A DNA stretch of 64,000 nucleotides from Chitinophagales bacterium (lineage in GTDB: Bacteria; Bacteroidota; Bacteroidia; Chitinophagales; JADIYW01): the NCBI GenBank assembly GCA_023957235.1, contig JAMLHI010000001.1, positions 124,001-188,000 of the forward strand, in the 5' to 3' direction. Position 1 is the first letter of the stretch, and every line of letters starts with the position of its first letter. The notes beneath the pieces were generated by a model, which searched no databases, was not told the DNA's origin, and saw nothing but the letters and a program-made list of their open reading frames with translations. Shown piece after piece: positions 4,635 to 15,036 of this stretch. Made by a program: the position numbers and the translations under genes.

Positions 4635-5552
4635 ATGCCCCACCAAAATCCACTCGTACAATCACTCTTAGAGCTTTCAGATGCTATTGAGCAGCTGGCA
4701 ACCACTATTGCCCGGCAAAAGAATAGCGACCAACAAATCCAACAAAAGCAGCTATCCGTTATTACCCAAAAATTCAAGCATGCTACGCAACTGATACACC
4801 CCGCTACGCAACAAGATAATGCGGCACTTATCCAACAAAAATATCAGAATGGATTTTTGAAAGAGCATCTAGACAATCAGGGCATTTTCATCTCCACCAC
4901 TATCGAAAATCTACGAGCCGATGAAAATCTGTATAAAGCAGTCGATTATCTGCAGGATCATTATACTTTACTAAAAGATTTTTATGCACACTTAAAAAGA
5001 AGTCAGGTTTTAAAAAAAGATTTTAATCATAAGAATACTGCGCACGCCATTCGCTATATTCAGGACTGGTGCAAAATACTGCACCATTATAAAATCATAG
5101 ATGGATTTAAAGTACTGAACCATTCAGAAATCTTTGTGGACATTGCTCAAATCGCTGAGGCTACCAGTTTTATCAACGGTTATTGGTTAGAGGTTTTGTT
5201 GAGAAGGGAAATTGCTTTGTTCCTACACGCTCATCTCTCTCAGATTCAGTCCTTCGATATTTTGAGTCAAACCACTGTTCTAAAGCAAGACAATACCAAT
5301 ACCGAACTCGATTTGTTATTGATGATCAATCAAAAAGTATATTGGTTTGAATGTAAAAGCGGTCAGATTAACAATTATTTTGAAAGATTCAAAGACACCA
5401 AAGAAGATCTGGGCATATCAGACAATCGTGCATTTTTAGTCATCCCAGCTCAAGACAACAATATTCCGCTTCATGCCAAAAAACGCTCCAATATGCTCAC
5501 ATTATTTGGCACTGAATTAGAAACACAATTAAAAAAACATCTGGATTTATAA
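4635..5552 (+). CDS. PD-(D/E)XK nuclease with DUF1887/Card1-like C-terminal domain, in the cmr operon
   Basis: The product has 305 residues. The C-terminal half has the PD-(D/E)XK pattern: WLE (E186), ELD (E224, D226), then E239-C-K241 in FECKSG, followed by a conserved-looking strand NRAFLVIP. The order FINGYWLE ... ELD ... ECKSG resembles the nuclease domain of DUF1887 proteins (Card1/Can2 type), which are CRISPR ancillary nucleases activated by cyclic oligoadenylate. Those proteins normally carry an N-terminal CARF Rossmann domain. Here residues 1-170 are Gln-rich and apparently helical or coiled-coil, with no Rossmann-type beta-alpha pattern that I can see. The gene sits between cmr6 (7 bp) and cas6 (1 bp), so it is co-transcribed with the effector. 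Substrate (DNA or RNA) and activator are unknown. The nuclease fold is likely; the role is inferred. Confidence 0.75.
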   Translation: MPHQNPLVQSLLELSDAIEQLATTIARQKNSDQQIQQKQLSVITQKFKHATQLIHPATQQDNAALIQQKYQNGFLKEHLDNQGIFISTTIENLRADENLYKAVDYLQDHYTLLKDFYAHLKRSQVLKKDFNHKNTAHAIRYIQDWCKILHHYKIIDGFKVLNHSEIFVDIAQIAEATSFINGYWLEVLLRREIALFLHAHLSQIQSFDILSQTTVLKQDNTNTELDLLLMINQKVYWFECKSGQINNYFERFKDTKEDLGISDNRAFLVIPAQDNNIPLHAKKRSNMLTLFGTELETQLKKHLDL

Positions 5553-5553
5553 C

Positions 5554-6417
5554 ATGAACTATCCTTATCAATTAAGCTTACACCGTTACAAGTTGACCTT
5601 TCAGCTTCCTGAAAATATGGACAATCAAAATTTCTTTGGCTCTAAGCTAAGAGGTATTTTAGGTGCTGTTTTAAAAGAAACAAATCCTGATGTTTTGAAA
5701 CATTTATACGAAAGACAAGCATTACCCAAAAACCACCCCGCATCGGTACATATTGGCGTAACACATAGTCCATCTCCTTTTATCATTTCAAGAATATTCC
5801 CCAAGGAATTTCAGCCGTCCCAAATTTCCTTTGTGCTGACTTTATTGGGTGACTATCATCAATATTTTATAAATATTTATCAAGCATTTGAAAATTTAGA
5901 AATTTTAGAAAACGAAAGTAAAGCCATCAAATTCATAGGTATGGAAAAACTCAATTGCTTAGAAACAGGACAACTGATTCATCATTATCAAGATATAGTA
6001 GCATTTTCAGAAAACATTGATACGACCTCTGTTACTTTGCTTTTCAAAAGTCCTTTTATTTTAGCAGATAAGAACAAAATGCCTATAGCTGATTTTTCTT
6101 TCCAAACTATCATTAAGAACTTGCACCGAAGACTAGCACTACTTTCTACTATTTTCGGACAGGCTACAACTGATATTGAAGAATGGGAAAGTGAAAACCT
6201 CAATCAGCAAGTACAACTTTCACATATTCAATTAACACCCAAAAAAATTAGTCGAGAACCAAGTGGGAAAAATAGCTATTCTAAAAATGCCTATATCGGC
6301 CAGCTCTCCTATGTTGGAGCATTAGAAAGCTACTTACCATTATTCATCATCGGGCAGTATATACATATCGGTGCTGATACTGCATTTGGATTAGGAAAAT
6401 ATAAATTAAAATATTGA
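5554..6417 (+). CDS. cas6: Cas6 CRISPR RNA processing endoribonuclease
   Basis: Cas6 cuts the precursor crRNA within each repeat, leaving an 8-nt repeat tag on the 5' side of every crRNA. The C-terminal segment YIGQLSYVGAL ... GQYIHIGADTAFGLGKYKL matches the Gly-rich RNA-binding loop and last strand of the CRISPR_Cas6 (PF10040) family. The N-terminal half has the first ferredoxin-like fold (YQLSLHRYKLTFQLPE). The length of 287 residues is normal. In this locus both repeat types have a small hairpin whose base lies exactly 8 nt from the repeat end, which fits Cas6 cleavage. The stop codon TGA overlaps the TTG start of the RT-Cas1 gene (TTGA). Confidence 0.9.
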   Translation: MNYPYQLSLHRYKLTFQLPENMDNQNFFGSKLRGILGAVLKETNPDVLKHLYERQALPKNHPASVHIGVTHSPSPFIISRIFPKEFQPSQISFVLTLLGDYHQYFINIYQAFENLEILENESKAIKFIGMEKLNCLETGQLIHHYQDIVAFSENIDTTSVTLLFKSPFILADKNKMPIADFSFQTIIKNLHRRLALLSTIFGQATTDIEEWESENLNQQVQLSHIQLTPKKISREPSGKNSYSKNAYIGQLSYVGALESYLPLFIIGQYIHIGADTAFGLGKYKLKY

Positions 6418-8642
6418 TAATAAATAAAGAACTATTACAAAACGCTTGGGAACAAATCCAATACAACAATGCACAAGGTGGTATTGACCGAATCTCTATT
6501 GATGATTTCAAAGAAAATAGTACTTCCAATTTAGAAAAAATAATTGTCAAATTACAATCTAAAACCTATTTACCACAACCCTATCTTCAAATCAAAATCC
6601 CTAAAGATAACGCTGAAAAACGAACAATCGGACTGGCTTCTATTGCCGATAAAATTGTTCAACAAGCCATCAACTCAATTCTAGAAAAAAGATTAGAAAA
6701 TACATTTTTGAATGTAAGCTACGCTTATAGAAAAGGAAAAGGAGCTCTCAAAGCCCTATCTCGTTTAAAACACCTTATTTTAAATGATAAAAATGAATTT
6801 ATTGTCAAATGTGATATAGACAATTTCTTTGACAATGTCCCTCACCATCGCTTAGAGAAAATATTAAACCCAATAGTAACAGATAAGTATTTCCTTGAAC
6901 TAATCTTAACATTCTGCAAAATGGGATATATAGAATCAGGAGTACAATGGAAAGATAGAGAAAAAGGTTTGCCACAAGGTGCAATACTATCACCGATACT
7001 TTCTAATCTATTTTTACACGCCCTAGACCAAAAGATGGTCAATAAAAAATATGCCTACATTCGCTATGCTGATGATTTTTTAATTCTTTGCAAACACGAA
7101 GAAGAGGCAAAAGCAATATTTTCAGAAACTCAAGATTATATTGTTCAAAAATTAAATTTAAAACTCAATGAGGACAATTATATAAAATCAATCCGTCAAG
7201 GCTTTAAATACCTAGGCGTTTGGGTGAATCAAGATGGCTTTTTTCTCAGACAAGAGAAAATAGAAAAAATTTGCGAAAAGATTAGAAAAGGATTTTTGCA
7301 TCCTGATTTCCCCAAAAAATATAAAGAAACAATTGCTGGCATTCAAAATTATTATGCCCAAGTTGTCCCTCAACATTACTTATTTCCTATTGATGAATTT
7401 CAAAAAGAAGTTTGGAAAGAAAAAATAAAAAAATTAAGAACTCAAAAAGAAGCAAAATTACTTTTAAACGAAATTGAATTTGTAACAGCTCATTTTAACC
7501 AAAATCAAGACTATCATATAAAACAAATTATTCGTTCAATTTTTGATGAAAAAAAAGCACCCATTATTGATACTGCAGAAAAAGCTATTCAGAAAAGAAA
7601 AAGAGAATTTGAACTGAAAGAATTTGAAAACCACGAGATCATTATTACTGGCTTTGGAAAATCATTAGGAATTGCCAAAAATCACTTAACGGTAAAAGTA
7701 GAAGGAAAACTAGTTCAAAAAGTTCCCCTACAAAACGTTGAACATATTTCTATACAATCAGAAGCTTGTAGTATCACTTCTAAATTAATTATCCATTGTG
7801 CAAAAAATAAAATACCCATTGATTTTACCGATTTTGGAGGAGAACCAGAAGCTAGATTATATGATACGATGAACGATATGTATGAACTATGGCATCAACA
7901 ATTTTTACACCTTTATTCCACAGAAGCCGTTCATACTGCCAATGCCATTATCATTGCCAAAATCAAAAATCAGAAAAAACTCATTCAATATTTCTCAAAA
8001 TATGCCAAAAAACATGAATCAGATTTGTCTGATGCACTCCCCTTTGCTTTAGAAAATTTCGATAAGCAATTGTCCAAAATTAAAGCCTTAAAGTCTAATT
8101 CAATTGATGAACACAGAGAAAAATTGATAAATATAGAAGCACAAGCATCTTTAACTTATTGGGAAATTGTTAGAATAATGATTGATGAAGAAACAAACTT
8201 TGAAACACGTACACGAAAAGGAGCAAAAGATTTAGTCAACAGCTTAATCAATTATGGCTACAGCATACTTTATCGCCACGTCTGGACATCCATTCTACAA
8301 CAAGGACTCAATCCAGCTTTTAGCTATATTCATCAACCAAGAAAATATGAAGGAACACTCATTTTTGATTTAATCGAACCCTTTAGACAGCCTATTATTG
8401 ATAGAGCCATAATTAGCTTAATTAATAAAAAAACAGAATTAAAAATCAAAGATGGAAAATTAGATAGTGCAACAATCCAAAAATTAATCGTTGCCGTCAA
8501 TGATAGATTAAGAAGATATGATACTTACTTAGGAGAAAGAAAAACAATGTTGAAAATTATAAAAAAACAAGCATGGCATTTTGTACAACACATTAAAAGC
8601 CCAGAGATTAAATTCAAACCTTATCAAATGAGTAAATGGTAA
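6414..8642 (+). CDS. cas1: Reverse transcriptase-Cas1 fusion protein
   Basis: This fusion joins a group II intron-like reverse transcriptase to the Cas1 integrase. The RT part (about residues 1-340) has NAEKRTIGLASIADKIVQQ, the motif A aspartates in KCDIDNFFD (D134, D136), GLPQGAILSPILSN and the catalytic YADD (218-221). The Cas1 part (about 408-742) has the expected metal ligands E575 (IEAQASLTYWE), H640 (SYIHQ) and D652 (FDLIEPFRQPIID). All catalytic residues appear intact. In studied RT-Cas1 systems the RT allows spacers to be acquired from RNA. No Cas6 domain is fused; cas6 is a separate gene. The start is a TTG that overlaps the cas6 stop; no in-frame ATG precedes the RT domain. cas2 follows after 43 bp, a gap that contains a heptamer tandem repeat. 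Confidence 0.96.
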   Translation: MIINKELLQNAWEQIQYNNAQGGIDRISIDDFKENSTSNLEKIIVKLQSKTYLPQPYLQIKIPKDNAEKRTIGLASIADKIVQQAINSILEKRLENTFLNVSYAYRKGKGALKALSRLKHLILNDKNEFIVKCDIDNFFDNVPHHRLEKILNPIVTDKYFLELILTFCKMGYIESGVQWKDREKGLPQGAILSPILSNLFLHALDQKMVNKKYAYIRYADDFLILCKHEEEAKAIFSETQDYIVQKLNLKLNEDNYIKSIRQGFKYLGVWVNQDGFFLRQEKIEKICEKIRKGFLHPDFPKKYKETIAGIQNYYAQVVPQHYLFPIDEFQKEVWKEKIKKLRTQKEAKLLLNEIEFVTAHFNQNQDYHIKQIIRSIFDEKKAPIIDTAEKAIQKRKREFELKEFENHEIIITGFGKSLGIAKNHLTVKVEGKLVQKVPLQNVEHISIQSEACSITSKLIIHCAKNKIPIDFTDFGGEPEARLYDTMNDMYELWHQQFLHLYSTEAVHTANAIIIAKIKNQKKLIQYFSKYAKKHESDLSDALPFALENFDKQLSKIKALKSNSIDEHREKLINIEAQASLTYWEIVRIMIDEETNFETRTRKGAKDLVNSLINYGYSILYRHVWTSILQQGLNPAFSYIHQPRKYEGTLIFDLIEPFRQPIIDRAIISLINKKTELKIKDGKLDSATIQKLIVAVNDRLRRYDTYLGERKTMLKIIKKQAWHFVQHIKSPEIKFKPYQMSKW

Positions 8643-8685: not shown

Positions 8686-8973
8686 ATGACTACAAAAACA
8701 CTGTATTTGATTTGTTATGACATACAAAAAGATAAGGCACGAAATAAAATTGCACAACTATTATCTGAAAATGGTAAAAGAATCAATTATAGTGTCTTTG
8801 AATGTTTTATTACCGAAACTAAGTTGCAAAAAATTAAAAATGAAATAGAAACACTTTGTAATGAAAAAACAGATTATATCAAAATATACCCTATTTGCCA
8901 AACTTGTTATTCTAAAAGCTTAATTATTGGAAATGAAGCATATTCCATCCAGAATCATAGTATTTTTATTTAA
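8686..8973 (+). CDS. cas2: Cas2, partner of Cas1 in spacer integration
   Basis: Cas2 is the small dimer that bridges two Cas1 dimers in the adaptation complex. The N-terminus (TLYLICYDIQKDKARNKIAQLLSENG) shows the first ferredoxin strand ending in the conserved Asp (D12) and the helix after it. SVFECFITE and IKIYPIC correspond to the next core strands. The length of 95 residues is typical. This is the last gene of the cas operon. The CRISPR leader begins directly after the stop codon, and there is no obvious terminator between cas2 and the array. Confidence 0.93.
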   Translation: MTTKTLYLICYDIQKDKARNKIAQLLSENGKRINYSVFECFITETKLQKIKNEIETLCNEKTDYIKIYPICQTCYSKSLIIGNEAYSIQNHSIFI

Positions 8974-9396
8974 AAAGACTTGCGAAAAAACATTGAGCCA
9001 TTGGATATTGATTATCATATAATTAGGAAAACCAAAGTTAAATAAATCAAATAGAATATTCGCAAAACGTAAAATAGGATAGAAAATAAAAATCTTTTGC
9101 GAAAAAACAAAAATTGAAGTTCTTTGACATACTGAAAATCAATATATTATAAATTTAAAAGCTGCATAAATTTCTCAAACATAAAAATAGGTAAGAGATA
9201 TAAAAATTATTGCGAACAATTATTCAATATAAAACTCTGATAATCAATATATATTTAGCGTCAACTCCATTTAATCAACAAATGAAAAATTCTGTTTTGC
9301 GAAAAAATAAGAAAATAAAACATTCTCCTTGAAATTCAATAAGATAGATTATCTTTGTATTGTGAGATTGAAAGTGCTGAGATTGAAAATCAAGGT
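8974..9396 (+). promoter_or_regulatory. CRISPR leader with repeated TTGCGAA motifs
   Basis: This AT-rich 423-bp stretch lies between cas2 and the first repeat. The heptamer TTGCGAA occurs four times in direct orientation (8980-8986, 9098-9104, 9210-9216, 9297-9303) and once inverted as TTCGCAA (9059-9065). Near the array an 11-mer, TGAGATTGAAA, is repeated with 15-bp period (9363-9373 and 9378-9388), ending 8 bp before the first repeat. A GTTCTTTGACAT segment lies near 9119. I see no open reading frame worth calling. The leader function follows from position; protein-binding roles of the motifs are inference. Confidence 0.8.
9329..9357 (+). promoter_or_regulatory. Predicted promoter of the CRISPR array
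   Basis: TTG (9329-9331) is followed after 18 bp by TATCTTTG (9350-9357). This closely fits the Bacteroidota promoter (TTTG, about 19 bp, TAnnTTTG). Transcription would start about 35 bp before the first repeat and run rightward through the array, giving crRNAs with the ACTGAAAC 5' tag. Confidence 0.7.
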
Positions 9397-12300
9397 GTTA
9401 CAAGAACATTTAGGCGACAGCCTACTGAAACGAATTGTACCACTTCTCCCGAAATCTGTGTCTGTTACAAGAACATTTAGGCGACAGCCTACTGAAACCT
9501 TCATAAGATTGATTTTCTAAAGAGTTTAATTGTTACAAGAACATTTAGGCGACAGCCTACTGAAACAAACTTCCAACTTGGAATAAAGTTCTTGTTTCTA
9601 GTTACAAGAACATTTAGGCGACAGCCTACTGAAACCCATTTGGTAGAGGGGTTTGTTCGTTTGTTTTTGTTACAAGAACATTTAGGCGACAGCCTACTGA
9701 AACGTTCCGCTTGGTGCTACATTCCTTGCTCTTACCCGTTACAAGAACATTTAGGCGACAGCCTACTGAAACGTTAAATCTGTTGCCATAATAAATAATT
9801 TTTTTGTTACAAGAACATTTAGGCGACAGCCTACTGAAACTTGTCAACTCTATTACTCTACCGTCTTCGTGGGTTAGTTACAAGAACATTTAGGCGACAG
9901 CCTACTGAAACGTTTGTTGCAACATTTAATAAGTAGCCCCTGTCGTCGTTACAAGAACATTTAGGCGACAGCCTACTGAAACACGCTCAATTAATTTGGT
10001 ACATTCTTTTTAGGTTACAAGAACATTTAGGCGACAGCCTACTGAAACATACCTGCGAGTAATTGGAGTTATATTCGCACTGGGTTACAAGAACATTTAG
10101 GCGACAGCCTACTGAAACGAACTCCCAACAGGCAACAACTCAAAAATTTCGTTACAAGAACATTTAGGCGACAGCCTACTGAAACCAGGAAGCGGTCCTT
10201 CAAGTTTAAAAAGATTCCACGTTACAAGAACATTTAGGCGACAGCCTACTGAAACTCGCTACACCAAAAGTGAAATCTTCCCTGTCTGTTACAAGAACAT
10301 TTAGGCGACAGCCTACTGAAACAAATTAACAACATCCCCGAATATCACAAGTTGATGTTACAAGAACATTTAGGCGACAGCCTACTGAAACAAATAAATA
10401 TCCTGTGAGAAATATAGTTGAAAAAGTTACAAGAACATTTAGGCGACAGCCTACTGAAACTTATTAGACTGTTTTAAAATTATAGTATAATCAGTTACAA
10501 GAACATTTAGGCGACAGCCTACTGAAACCTTTAAGATATTCTTCTTGAGATAACATATAAATTGTTACAAGAACATTTAGGCGACAGCCTACTGAAACTT
10601 CTTCTTCACTTAACTGCCCAAACCCGTCAAAGTTACAAGAACATTTAGGCGACAGCCTACTGAAACATTTGAAGCTACCTTTTTAAGTATGCTTTTGACG
10701 GTTACAAGAACATTTAGGCGACAGCCTACTGAAACTTATCATCTCGTATATATTCTAATTCAGCAGACGTTACAAGAACATTTAGGCGACAGCCTACTGA
10801 AACAATAGCCATAAGATGCTGGAAATGAATAGGTTTGTTACAAGAACATTTAGGCGACAGCCTACTGAAACTTATCACAACCTTCCGTAATCAATATCGC
10901 TTCTTTGTTACAAGAACATTTAGGCGACAGCCTACTGAAACATTTTGGAATTTAATAAATATCCATAGAAACAAGGTTACAAGAACATTTAGGCGACAGC
11001 CTACTGAAACCCGAGCTAACTTAAATAATTAGAACTATCAACCTGTTACAAGAACATTTAGGCGACAGCCTACTGAAACACATTTGCCAATGTTAAAAAT
11101 TTTAAATTCATGTTACAAGAACATTTAGGCGACAGCCTACTGAAACGGTCTAAATCAATATCTACAATGGTGCTAATGTCTGTTACAAGAACATTTAGGC
11201 GACAGCCTACTGAAACCACTTATCACAATATTTCATAGTCCAAGCCATTTTAGTTACAAGAACATTTAGGCGACAGCCTACTGAAACTCCCCTCCACCAG
11301 TGTGGCGGTACAGATGCACTGTTACAAGAACATTTAGGCGACAGCCTACTGAAACCTTTACCTGTTTGTTTGTTAATAATCCATCCTTGTTACAAGAACA
11401 TTTAGGCGACAGCCTACTGAAACAAAATTTCCACCAAGTAAGATTTTTTATATACCAGTTACAAGAACATTTAGGCGACAGCCTACTGAAACACAGCGTA
11501 GTAAACGCGTTTCTTGCCCCTACGGAAAGTTACAAGAACATTTAGGCGACAGCCTACTGAAACGTTTGGTTTTTGATTGTTTAAAAAATTGTTTACCAGG
11601 TTACAAGAACATTTAGGCGACAGCCTACTGAAACAGATTAAAGATAAATTTTTCATGGCTATTTTTTTAGTTACAAGAACATTTAGGCGACAGCCTACTG
11701 AAACCCCACGGGCATCATATTGCCCTGTGAATATCCTGGTTACAAGAACATTTAGGCGACAGCCTACTGAAACCTTGTTGTTGCTGTTGCAAAAAAGATT
11801 ACTGCGTTACAAGAACATTTAGGCGACAGCCTACTGAAACACGCCCGCCTCCTTTTGAAATTGAACAAAGCGAGTTACAAGAACATTTAGGCGACAGCCT
11901 ACTGAAACCTAAATCGCGGATGGTAAGTTTTACCTCATCATCGTTACAAGAACATTTAGGCGACAGCCTACTGAAACCATTAAAATCTTCCGCACAGCCT
12001 ATTTCTATTTGTGTTACAAGAACATTTAGGCGACAGCCTACTGAAACTTCCATCCATTCTTTAATTGCTTGAACTACTTCTACGTTACAAGAACATTTAG
12101 GCGACAGCCTACTGAAACTCTTTTTTTGTTGGTTAAAAATGCTTTTTAGTTGTTACAAGAACATTTAGGCGACAGCCTACTGAAACGTATTAACATCATC
12201 ATAGGATCATTGAATTTCATTGTGTGAGTTACAAGAACATTTAGGCGACAGCCTACTGAAACCTTTAGATATTTTAAAATTTTTATCTAAAAAGTGTTAC

Positions 12301-12745
12301 AAGAACATTTAGGCGACAGCCTACTGAAACTCATTACTTTAAATGACAAGTTTTTGCTTTCTCCATGTTACAAGAACATTTAGGCGACAGCCTACTGAAA
12401 CAACAATATTGAAATATATAATAATATTAACATGTTACAAGAACATTTAGGCGACAGCCTACTGAAACGCCTTTGATATTATCTCAGGCAGAAACTCTAA
12501 ATTGTTACAAGAACATTTAGGCGACAGCCTACTGAAACTAATAAAAATATTCTTCAAAATAATTATCATTATGTTACAAGAACATTTAGGCGACAGCCTA
12601 CTGAAACACGGCAAATATCATAAAAATATTTTTTTTCATGTGTTACAAGAACATTTAGGCGACAGCCTACTGAAACGAATAATCGCATGATGCGATTAAT
12701 TATTATTTCTGTTACAAGAACATTTAGGCGACAGCCTACTGAAAC
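9397..12745 (+). repeat. Type-1 repeat block of the array (49 repeats)
   Basis: Forty-nine repeats, from 9397-9431 to 12711-12745, look identical by eye. The usual period is 66-71 bp. One long spacer (41 nt, 12187-12227) follows the repeat at 12152. This is the leader-proximal and so the youngest part of the array. Confidence 0.95.
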
Positions 12746-12780
12746 GTAAGCGGATGATAAATTATCTGAGTACTCTGCAT

Positions 12781-12815
12781 GTTACAAGAACATTTAGGCG
12801 AAAGCCTACTGAAAC
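12781..12815 (+). repeat. Chimeric CRISPR repeat (type-1 5' half, type-2 3' half)
   Basis: This repeat has the type-1 5' part (GTTACAAGAACATTTAGGCG) joined to the type-2 loop base and 3' part (AAAGCCTACTGAAAC). It stands exactly at the border between the type-1 block on the left and the type-2 block on the right. Confidence 0.95.
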
Positions 12816-12849
12816 TCATGTGTTGAATTTAGAAATTAAAAAAAAGGTT

Positions 12850-13714
12850 GATTAGAACTATCAAAGGCGAAAGCCTACTGAAACTATTTACATATTTTAC
12901 AACATGCCTGTTGCTTTTGATTAGAACTATCAAAGGCGAAAGCCTACTGAAACCAAGAATTTTCATTGAAAGCGGTTTTGTGCTTGATTAGAACTATCAA
13001 AGGCGAAAGCCTACTGAAACCATAAAATAAATTTTGAAAATTAATAATATGCTAGATTAGAACTATCAAAGGCGAAAGCCTACTGAAACTATGTTATTAT
13101 GTCCTCAAAACTATTCCCTATAAAGATTAGAACTATCAAAGGCGAAAGCCTACTGAAACAATGTAAGACAAGATATAATTAATCCAGTAATGATTAGAAC
13201 TATCAAAGGCGAAAGCCTACTGAAACATTTTATTTATATTTTTGTCAAGGAACTTTTGAGAGTGATTAGAACTATCAAAGGCGAAAGCCTACTGAAACTG
13301 TCTTGTACCATTTTTTATTCTAATTTTAAGTTGGATTAGAACTATCAAAGGCGAAAGCCTACTGAAACTTTGTTCTTTTTCATAGGTATATGCGCTAAAA
13401 TCTTGATTAGAACTATCAAAGGCGAAAGCCTACTGAAACAGGGGAAAATATATAAAAAGAGGGTATTTCTACCCTGATTAGAACTATCAAAGGCGAAAGC
13501 CTACTGAAACGAGCTTTTCTTTCATTTGATAAAGTATTCATGTGATTAGAACTATCAAAGGCGAAAGCCTACTGAAACAATTTCTTCCAATTTCCTGATT
13601 CACTTTCTAAGGATTAGAACTATCAAAGGCGAAAGCCTACTGAAACCTATTTTATAAGGTTTTTCTTTTATAAAATTTTGATTAGAACTATCAAAGGCGA
13701 AAGCCTACTGAAAC
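12850..13714 (+). repeat. Type-2 repeat block of the array (13 repeats)
   Basis: Thirteen apparently identical repeats start at 12850, 12919, 12986, 13055, 13125, 13192, 13264, 13334, 13405, 13476, 13544, 13612 and 13680. They begin GATTAGAACTATCAAAGGCG and end with the same GCCTACTGAAAC as type 1. Spacers are 32-37 nt and AT-rich. Confidence 0.96.
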
Positions 13715-13750
13715 AATGTTTACATCAACAAGTGTTGAAACATCAAACAA

Positions 13751-13785
13751 GTTACAAGAACATTTAGGCGACAGCCTACTGACAT
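13751..13785 (+). repeat. Terminal degenerate type-1 CRISPR repeat
   Basis: After the type-2 block the final repeat is again type 1 and matches at 33 of 35 positions. The end is GACAT instead of GAAAC, so the 8-nt tag is damaged. Degeneration of the distal repeat is normal in CRISPR arrays. A type-1 repeat here shows that the type-2 block is enclosed by type-1 repeats on both sides. Confidence 0.95.
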
Positions 13786-14910
13786 CTTAAAGCAACCTCA
13801 ACGTCATATCGACCAACGGGAGATATCTCTAAGATTAAAGGCGTTCCCAAAAGAGACTCCTCCTATAGTCAGAGTGACGGAGTTTAGGAAAGGAGTATTC
13901 AATCAAGGCGTCATTTCGACGAGGCACGAGGAGAAATCTCTAAGATTAAAGGCGTTCCCCAAAGAGATCTCTCCCTTTGGTCGAGATGACGGTGTTCATG
14001 AAAGGAGTATTCAATCAAAACGTCATTTCGACGAGGCACAAGGAGAATTGAAAATCAGCGGAGCTAAATCTCATAAATTAACAACGTTCCTCAAAGAGAT
14101 CTCTCCCTTTGGTCGAGATGACGGCGTTCATGAAAGGAGTATTCAATCAAGGCGTCATTTCGACGAGGCACAAGGAGAATTGAAAATCAGCGGAGCTAAA
14201 TCTCATAAATTAACAACGTTCCTCAAAGAGATCTCTCCCTTTGGTCGAGATGACGGCGTTCATGAAAGGAGTATTCAATCAAGGGCGTCATTTCGACGAG
14301 GCCTGGAGAATTGAAAATCCAGCGGAGCTAAATCTCATAAACTAATAACGTTCCGAAAAGAGATCTCTCCCTTTGGTCGAGATGACGGCGTTCATGAAGA
14401 GGTATTCAATCAAGGCGTCATTTCGGCGAAGCACAGGAAAATTGAAAATCAGCGGAGCTAAATCTCATAAATTAACAACGTTCCTCAAAGAGATCTCTCC
14501 CTTTGGTCGAGATGACGGCGTTCATGAAAGGAGTATTCAATCAAGGCGTCATTTCGACGAGGCACGAGGAGAATTGAAAATCAGCGGAGCTAAATCTCAT
14601 AAACTAATAACGTTCCGAAAAGAGATCTCTCCCTTTGGTCGAGATGACGGCGTTCATGAACAGCGTTCCTTAAAGAGACTCCTCCTATAGTCGGAGTGAC
14701 GAGGTTCAGGAAAGGAGTGTTGAATGTTGAGAAATGAGAGGAACAATTTGTCCCTTTGACGGTTCGAGTATTTCGGCAAGCTCAATAACCATGCCTCACC
14801 GTCCAGTAATGCTCGGTCATTGAGGTTTGGTCATCGAGCCTGTCGAGATGCTCGAAATGACGGTTCGAGTATTTCGGCAAGCTCAATAACCATGCCTCAC
14901 CGTCCAGTCA
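13786..14910. repeat. Dispersed intergenic repeat island, family A
   Basis: About 1.1 kb of tandem and scrambled copies of a Bacteroidota-type intergenic repeat. The recurring modules are GTCATTTCGACGAGGCAC, GAGATCTCTCCCTTTGGTCG with ATGACGG, and AGAGACTCCTCCTATAGTCG with GAGTGACGG. A longer unit carrying AAAATCAGCGGAGC is repeated about four times, nearly identically (about 14040-14650). Open frames in this block are by-products of the repeats. It lies between the last CRISPR repeat and a fossil CRISPR repeat. Confidence 0.9.
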
Positions 14911-14934
14911 GTTCCAAGAGCATTTAGGCGATAG
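14911..14934 (+). repeat. Fossil type-1 CRISPR repeat outside the array
   Basis: The segment GTTCCAAGAGCATTTAGGCG and the four bases after it match the first 24 nt of the type-1 repeat at 21 positions. The 3' part of the repeat is lost. It is 1.1 kb beyond the end of the array, in the same orientation. Confidence 0.75.
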
Positions 14935-15036
14935 TGTCAACCTATTTTAGGACAAGGCACATTAACATCGATACAACTTTAACTATTTGTTTTTTCAAAT
15001 TTAAGAGAATTAGTATATTTATATCAAACCTCTATA

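What the first reader, a model, noticed from the sequence alone, without database searches (positions are those of the whole stretch)
12711..13785. One CRISPR array contains two repeat types joined by a chimeric repeat
Forty-nine type-1 repeats are followed by one repeat with type-1 5' half and type-2 3' half (12781-12815), then 13 type-2 repeats, then a final type-1 repeat (13751). The two types share the last 15 nt except one base in the hairpin loop. Two histories fit. A type-2 array segment could have recombined into the type-1 array through the shared 3' half. Alternatively the leader-proximal repeat, the template for all new repeats, was converted stepwise (5' half first, then the loop base), and each stage was preserved. 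The type-1 repeat at the far end favours recombination, because the second model needs two switches.
Basis: partly seen in the sequence, partly recalled or inferred. Interest (0 to 1): 0.8.

Follow-up and report, generated by a model that had tools for sequence, protein, structure and literature searches.

The report
CRISPR array with an inserted second-type block
A bacterial immune-memory array built from one kind of repeat carries, near its oldest end, a block of 13 repeats of another kind, most likely spliced in by recombination through the half that both repeats share; such mixing is known in principle, but the junction is unusually easy to read here.

Summary
The array at 9397-13785 has 64 repeats in regular phase: 49 exact type-1, one that is type-1 except for the type-2 loop base (12781), 13 exact type-2, and a terminal type-1 (13751) with two changes in its last three letters. 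The types differ at 13 of 35 columns: 12 in columns 2-15, one (the loop) in the last 20. The array follows a type III-B operon with RT-Cas1 and Cas2, so the type-2 block lies at the old end.

Best reading: a type-2 block recombined into an older type-1 array through the shared hairpin half. Junctions map to 12796-12801 and, most simply, 13702-13714. Type-1-like relics flank this locus; type-2-like relics lie 380 kb away and, as a two-repeat orphan pair, in one genome of another family. No intact type-2 donor array was found. Spacer GC differs between the two blocks as wholes (p = 0.035) but not at their edge (p = 0.73).

Recombination between CRISPR loci and mixed-repeat arrays are already reported, so this is a clear new case of a known kind.

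The parts
5554..6417 (+). Cas6, the likely processing enzyme for both repeat types (function on type-2 not tested)
   Evidence: Pfam PF10040, PADLOC Cas6
6414..8642 (+). Reverse transcriptase-Cas1 fusion
   Evidence: Pfam RVT_1 and Cas_Cas1; PADLOC Cas1_IIIb 5e-156
8686..8973 (+). Cas2
   Evidence: Pfam PF09827 2.1e-21
8974..9396 (+). 423-nt gap between cas2 and the first repeat, presumed leader
   Evidence: position; orientation inferred from the cas genes and the GAAAC 3' end of the repeats (recalled convention); not tested
9397..12745 (+). 49 identical type-1 repeats (#1-49) and the 48 spacers between them
12781..12815 (+). Junction repeat #50: type-1 at all 12 diagnostic columns of the 5' half, type-2 at the loop column 22; breakpoint 12796-12801
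12850..13714 (+). 13 identical type-2 repeats (#51-63)
13702..13714 (+). Most likely right breakpoint: shared last 13 nt of repeat #63 (outer limits 13702-13751)
   Evidence: placement inside #63 is inferred
13751..13785 (+). Terminal type-1 repeat #64 with a decayed 3' end
13786..14945 (+). Tract of dispersed intergenic repeats homologous to tracts left of the cas operon; a decayed type-1-like copy (12 mismatches) stands at 14911-14945

Best explanation
An array of type-1 repeats, served by a type III-B operon with RT-Cas1 and Cas2, received a block of 13 type-2 repeat-spacer units by homologous recombination between arrays. The crossovers fell in the 20-nt 3' half that both repeat types share, which holds the hairpin and presumably the crRNA 5' handle. 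The left crossover (or repair of the mismatch at the loop) left repeat #50 with a type-1 5' half and the type-2 loop base. The right one most simply fell in the shared last 13 nt of #63, so that spacer 63 and terminal repeat #64 are original type-1 material. New spacers at the leader went on being added with the type-1 repeat. Because the shared half is what Cas6 should read, the inserted spacers probably still give working crRNAs. Shown: the repeat layout, breakpoint intervals, phase, flank homology of #64, and type-2-like relics elsewhere. Inferred: the direction of the event, the donor, and continued function.
For: One junction repeat carries the type-2 base at the only diagnostic column of the 3' half. 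Spacing stays in phase at both junctions (34-36 nt). #64 and its downstream flank are homologous to two type-1-like copies with the same kind of downstream flank left of the cas operon. Type-1-like and type-2-like relics lie in different places: type-1-like at G000:C1:116595, 117214, 118832 and window 14911; type-2-like at C1:517527 and 517899 and in G041 at C31:301204, 301277, 285422. The G041 pair has 2 and 1 mismatches to type-2. Both types fold with the same 4-bp core hairpin (AGGC/GCCU) and close energies (-7.0 and -6.6 kcal/mol), though the outer pairs differ. Spacers 1-49 and 50-62 differ in GC as groups (0.320 and 0.243, p = 0.035), but see against.
Against: No intact type-2 donor array: none elsewhere in this genome and no match in the other two genomes of the genus. 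The shared 20-nt half (up to 1 mismatch) occurs in only 2 of 396 order genomes and 1 of 395 class genomes, the latter being this genome. Exact type-2 gave 0 in genome contigs, its first 19 nt 0 in viral contigs, and the array no plasmid match. The GC difference is not tied to the block: the best change point is after spacer 39, inside the type-1 block, and spacers 40-49 (0.227) and 50-62 (0.243) do not differ (p = 0.73). The shared tract is short (6 + 13 nt around one mismatch). A single reciprocal crossover upstream of the loop would leave the type-1 loop base in #63, which is not seen, so two crossovers, or mismatch repair toward A at both ends, are needed.
Confidence: 0.68

Rival explanations
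1. Stepwise conversion of the leader-proximal repeat: new repeats are copied from it, so a change there is recorded in all later units. The array would have gone type-1 (#64), type-2 (#63-51), type-1 with A (#50), type-1 (#49-1).
For: Spacer composition is continuous over the boundary (spacers 40-49 against 50-62, p = 0.73). Each stage would be preserved as a block of identical repeats, as seen.
Against: Needs 12 columns of the 5' half to change together twice, the second time back to exactly the type-1 sequence, which point mutation cannot plausibly do; gene conversion would be needed each time.
Confidence: 0.12
2. Fusion by deletion: an upstream type-1 array and a downstream type-2 array in the same locus were joined by one crossover in the shared half, deleting what lay between.
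For: One crossover upstream of the loop gives exactly repeat #50. Type-1-like relics flank the locus on both sides.
Against: Then #64 must already have ended the type-2 array, in phase (36-nt spacer) and with the flank of the type-1 locus.
Confidence: 0.1
3. The single-base difference in #50 is an unrelated point mutation and the type-2 block entered by some other route, for example as one long insert between two copies of a type-1 repeat.
For: The block, with spacers 50 and 63 at its ends, lies between two type-1 repeats, the topology that a Cas1-Cas2 insertion leaves (the topology is recalled knowledge).
Against: The change is the type-2 letter in the repeat that abuts the block (about 1 in 5,000 by chance, my arithmetic); Cas1-Cas2 inserts are normally of spacer length (recalled).
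Confidence: 0.06
4. Assembly artefact that joins two arrays.
For: No reads were available; the genome is in 17 contigs.
Against: The array is at 133-138 kb of a 637-kb contig, not at its end. At each of six k values tested from 21 to 55 the k-mers that cover both diagnostic parts of #50 are unique in the window, and unique spacers lie on both sides; this makes a false join unlikely but does not exclude it.
Confidence: 0.04

Closest known systems
Recombination of spacer-repeat stretches between CRISPR loci, as described for Sulfolobus (review PMC4390879, passages seen)
   Same: Blocks of repeats and spacers move between loci; recombination between direct repeats is the proposed cause.
   Different: Here the two repeat families differ at 13 of 35 columns and only the 3' half is shared; no donor locus was found in the genome.
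[quoted passage not shown]
   Same: Arrays with mixed repeats, mentioned together with recombination.
   Different: Cannot be compared in detail: the preprint was not seen.
Type III-B CRISPR-Cas with CorA, in some genomes with RT-Cas1 (PMC10600005, passages seen)
   Same: cmr genes, cas6, RT-Cas1, cas2, and corA next to a DEDD-type nuclease gene.
   Different: The passages seen do not deal with repeats.

Membership tests
CRISPR array | regular direct repeats with unique spacers of like length next to cas genes | tested here: met
   64 repeats, 63 spacers of 31-41 nt; longest stretch shared by two spacers 13 nt; cas2 ends 423 nt upstream
Type III-B CRISPR-Cas with RT-Cas1 | cas10/cmr2 and cmr genes, RT-Cas1 fusion | tested here: met
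Type III-B CRISPR-Cas with RT-Cas1 | spacer acquisition from RNA | not testable with these tools
   needs experiment
Array formed by recombination between two arrays | junction repeat with the 5' part of one type and the 3' part of the other | tested here: met
   repeat #50; rests on one diagnostic base in the 3' half
Array formed by recombination between two arrays | surviving donor array of the second repeat type, or shared spacers | tested here: not met
   no intact type-2 array found; only relics and a two-repeat pair in G041; no metagenome scan was allowed
Array formed by recombination between two arrays | change of spacer character at the junction | tested here: inconclusive
   GC of spacers 1-49 and 50-62 differs (p = 0.035), but the change comes after spacer 39 and spacers 40-49 equal 50-62 (p = 0.73)

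The most novel reading that the evidence does not exclude
The whole type-2 block entered as one very long insert through the adaptation machinery, for example as a reverse-transcribed multi-unit precursor crRNA of a type-2 array joined into a type-1 repeat by RT-Cas1 and Cas2, which would leave type-1 repeats on both sides and copy immune memory from one array into another. Nothing here excludes it, but the loop base of #50 would then be coincidence or a repair trace.
Probability: 0.03. Interest if true: 0.85.

Novelty: new member of a known kind. Interest (0 to 1): 0.42.

Why it matters
If the reading is right, it is a legible record of memory moving between two CRISPR repeat lineages, with the exchange mapped to the half of the repeat that processing depends on while the other half differs. 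If crRNAs from the type-2 block are processed by the same Cas6, it shows that an array can adopt another array's memory as long as the hairpin half matches, which can be tested directly.

Tried and rejected
Donor searches gave no intact type-2 array: exact type-2 in genome contigs 0; shared 3' half in viral contigs 0, 19-nt type-2 and type-1 cores there 0 and 0; array against plasmids no match; array against phages 50 records with short matches, best E among the 20 listed 0.03, 30 not listed. These tools may leave out records near the window's own genome. RT-Cas1 in genome contigs found no relative. RT-Cas1 relatives at E <= 1e-60 occur in 5 of 396 order genomes, this one included. Near the four others a search for three or more exact 20-mers at array spacing found an array in G065 only, with a different repeat, and none in the stretches held from G002, G269 and G149.

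Spacer targets: the 63 joined spacers against 396 order genomes gave 19 genomes besides this one with weak matches (E 1.2e-5 to 9.5e-4), some across a join between spacers; I take none as a target. That search scored only 2 of its first-look candidates in each genome (99 in this one), so it does not show that targets are absent. Against 106 kb of this genome's DNA that I held, with the array masked, the best matches were 15 nt, E 0.002 per spacer for 63 spacers, no more than chance.

Rfam matches in the region were below the gathering scores and taken as chance. By eye the type-1 and type-2 5' halves can be aligned with gaps; I did not test it and make no claim. I considered that the palindromic spacer of the G041 pair is a dispersed element; at up to 3 mismatches the full palindrome occurs once in G041, so I make no claim.

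Full report
Observation. The window lies at G000:C1:124001-188000 of a 3.0-Mb genome in 17 contigs. A script over the window found 64 repeats at 9397-13785. Repeats 1-49 are identical (type-1), #50 at 12781 differs from type-1 at one base, #51-63 are identical (type-2), and #64 at 13751 is type-1 with two differences in its last three letters. The types differ at columns 2, 4-6, 8-15 and 22. All 63 spacers are 31-41 nt long, and the longest stretch shared by two of them is 13 nt.

Setting. Upstream on the same strand are cmr genes, a protein with a Card1-like endonuclease domain, Cas6, RT-Cas1 and Cas2. Further upstream, before the window, the operon has Cmr1, a CorA-like protein and a DEDDh-type exonuclease; Cas10 starts before the window and ends at 976. 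The 423 nt between cas2 and the first repeat are the presumed leader. New units are added there (recalled), so the type-2 block is older than the type-1 block upstream of it, unless inserted later as a block, and #64 is the oldest position.

The junctions. #50 has the type-1 letter at all 12 diagnostic columns of its 5' half and the type-2 letter at the only diagnostic column of the 3' half; this puts the left breakpoint in 12796-12801. The right breakpoint lies between the loop of #63 and the second base of #64; if it fell in a repeat, it is in the last 13 nt of #63. As an unrelated point mutation the #50 change would be a coincidence of about 1 in 5,000 (35 x 3 substitutions, 50 repeats; my arithmetic). 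Both junctions keep phase, so the block looks exchanged repeat for repeat.

The terminal repeat. Aligned with two type-1-like copies left of the cas operon (L009:2596 and 4833), the similarity of the array end starts in the repeat and runs on into the downstream flank, while the upstream flanks differ. Similar tracts of dispersed intergenic repeats follow all three, and the tracts at window 13751-14945 and L009:2596-3249 both end with another decayed type-1-like copy. In the one search made, the tract matches on C13, C14 and C15 and at other C1 places outside this locus start after the repeat part of the query. #64 is therefore best seen as part of the type-1 locus, and the type-2 block as sitting inside type-1 material.

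Type-2 elsewhere. At up to 3 mismatches type-2-like sequence occurs in this genome outside the block only at C1:517527 and 517899, two copies within a duplicated, largely intergenic stretch. Of 396 genomes of the order only this one and G041 hold the shared 20-nt half with up to one mismatch; of 395 of the class, only this one. Fourteen of these class genomes, this one included, were also in the order sample, by my count of handles, so 777 distinct genomes were searched. In G041, from another family, two type-2-like repeats (2 and 1 mismatches) stand 38 nt apart around a palindrome, and a third, more decayed, lies 16 kb away. Of 30 genomes of G041's family only G041 has them. No array of three or more exact repeats was detected in the 20 kb around the pair; G041 has a Cas1 on another contig beside a short array, three copies detected, of a different repeat. 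I read these as remains of a separate type-2 repeat lineage in the order; they are not a donor.

Against. No intact type-2 array or matching spacer was found, although the spacer search was partial (2 of 99 first-look candidates scored in this genome). Spacer GC differs between spacers 1-49 and 50-62 taken whole (0.320 and 0.243, p = 0.035), but the best change point is after spacer 39, within the type-1 block, and spacers 40-49 and 50-62 are alike (0.227 and 0.243, p = 0.73). So the composition gives no sign of a foreign block as such. The shared tract is short for homologous recombination, although arrays offer many in-phase partners. A circle insertion by one crossover upstream of the loop would leave the type-1 loop base in #63, which is not seen; two crossovers, or repair of the mismatch toward A at both ends, are required.

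Mechanism. Both types form the same 4-bp core hairpin with close energies (-7.0 and -6.6 kcal/mol); the outer pairs differ. They share the last 13 nt, so the Cas6 of this operon should process both; this is inferred. The 5' half, in which they differ, would then matter for adaptation, where only the leader-proximal type-1 repeat is used.

What is known. A review of Sulfolobales states that spacer-repeat regions can recombine between different CRISPR loci in a cell and that structural changes were inferred to come from recombination between direct repeats (PMC4390879, passages). [quoted passage not shown] the work it cites was not seen. SpacerPlacer cites a finding that recombination between arrays is rare (PMC11472070, passages). 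Among the titles and abstract starts listed (searches listed none) I saw no paper on this array or on a junction repeat of this kind; the library holds open-licence papers only. The case is thus a new member of a known kind, with an unusually legible junction.

It added the p = 0.035 group difference, the limited scoring, the difference in outer pairs, and a further spacer search in held DNA.

Noticed in passing
window 11011-11044 (spacer 24): This spacer of the type-1 block contains 14 nt identical to type-2 columns 2-15, ending exactly where the shared half begins. About 0.0007 matches of 14 nt to either repeat are expected under an independent-letter model, and none of 200,000 random 34-mers of the window matched type-2 by more than 10 nt. 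It may derive from DNA with a type-2-like 5' half.
   Followed up: partly
G000:C1:119568-121723 (L009:5569-7724), upstream of the window: A DEDDh-type exonuclease gene beside a CorA-like gene in the same operon, an arrangement described for type III-B systems with SAM-AMP signalling in PMC10600005 (passages).
   Followed up: partly
window 4635-5552: A protein with a Card1-like endonuclease domain in an operon that also carries CorA, which suggests two effectors.
   Followed up: no
window 13751-14945; L009:2596-3249 and 4833-5260: Tracts of dispersed intergenic repeats on both sides of the cas locus that begin, and in two of three cases end, with type-1-like CRISPR repeats, as if the locus end had been duplicated.
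   Followed up: partly
spacers 40-63 (window 12119-13750): Older spacers are poorer in G+C than spacers 1-39; the change comes ten spacers before the repeat-type boundary.
   Followed up: partly
G041:C31:301204-301311 (L063:11205-11312): Orphan pair of type-2-like repeats whose 38-nt spacer is nearly all palindrome, found once in that genome.
   Followed up: partly
G041:C13:60401-60435 (L064:10402-10436): A single copy with the shared 3' half (1 mismatch) and a 5' half unlike either type (9 mismatches to type-2, 11 to type-1); possibly a third repeat variant or chance.
   Followed up: partly
G000:C12:175000-190000 (L065): A second Cas1 with an array of a different repeat in the same genome.
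   Followed up: no
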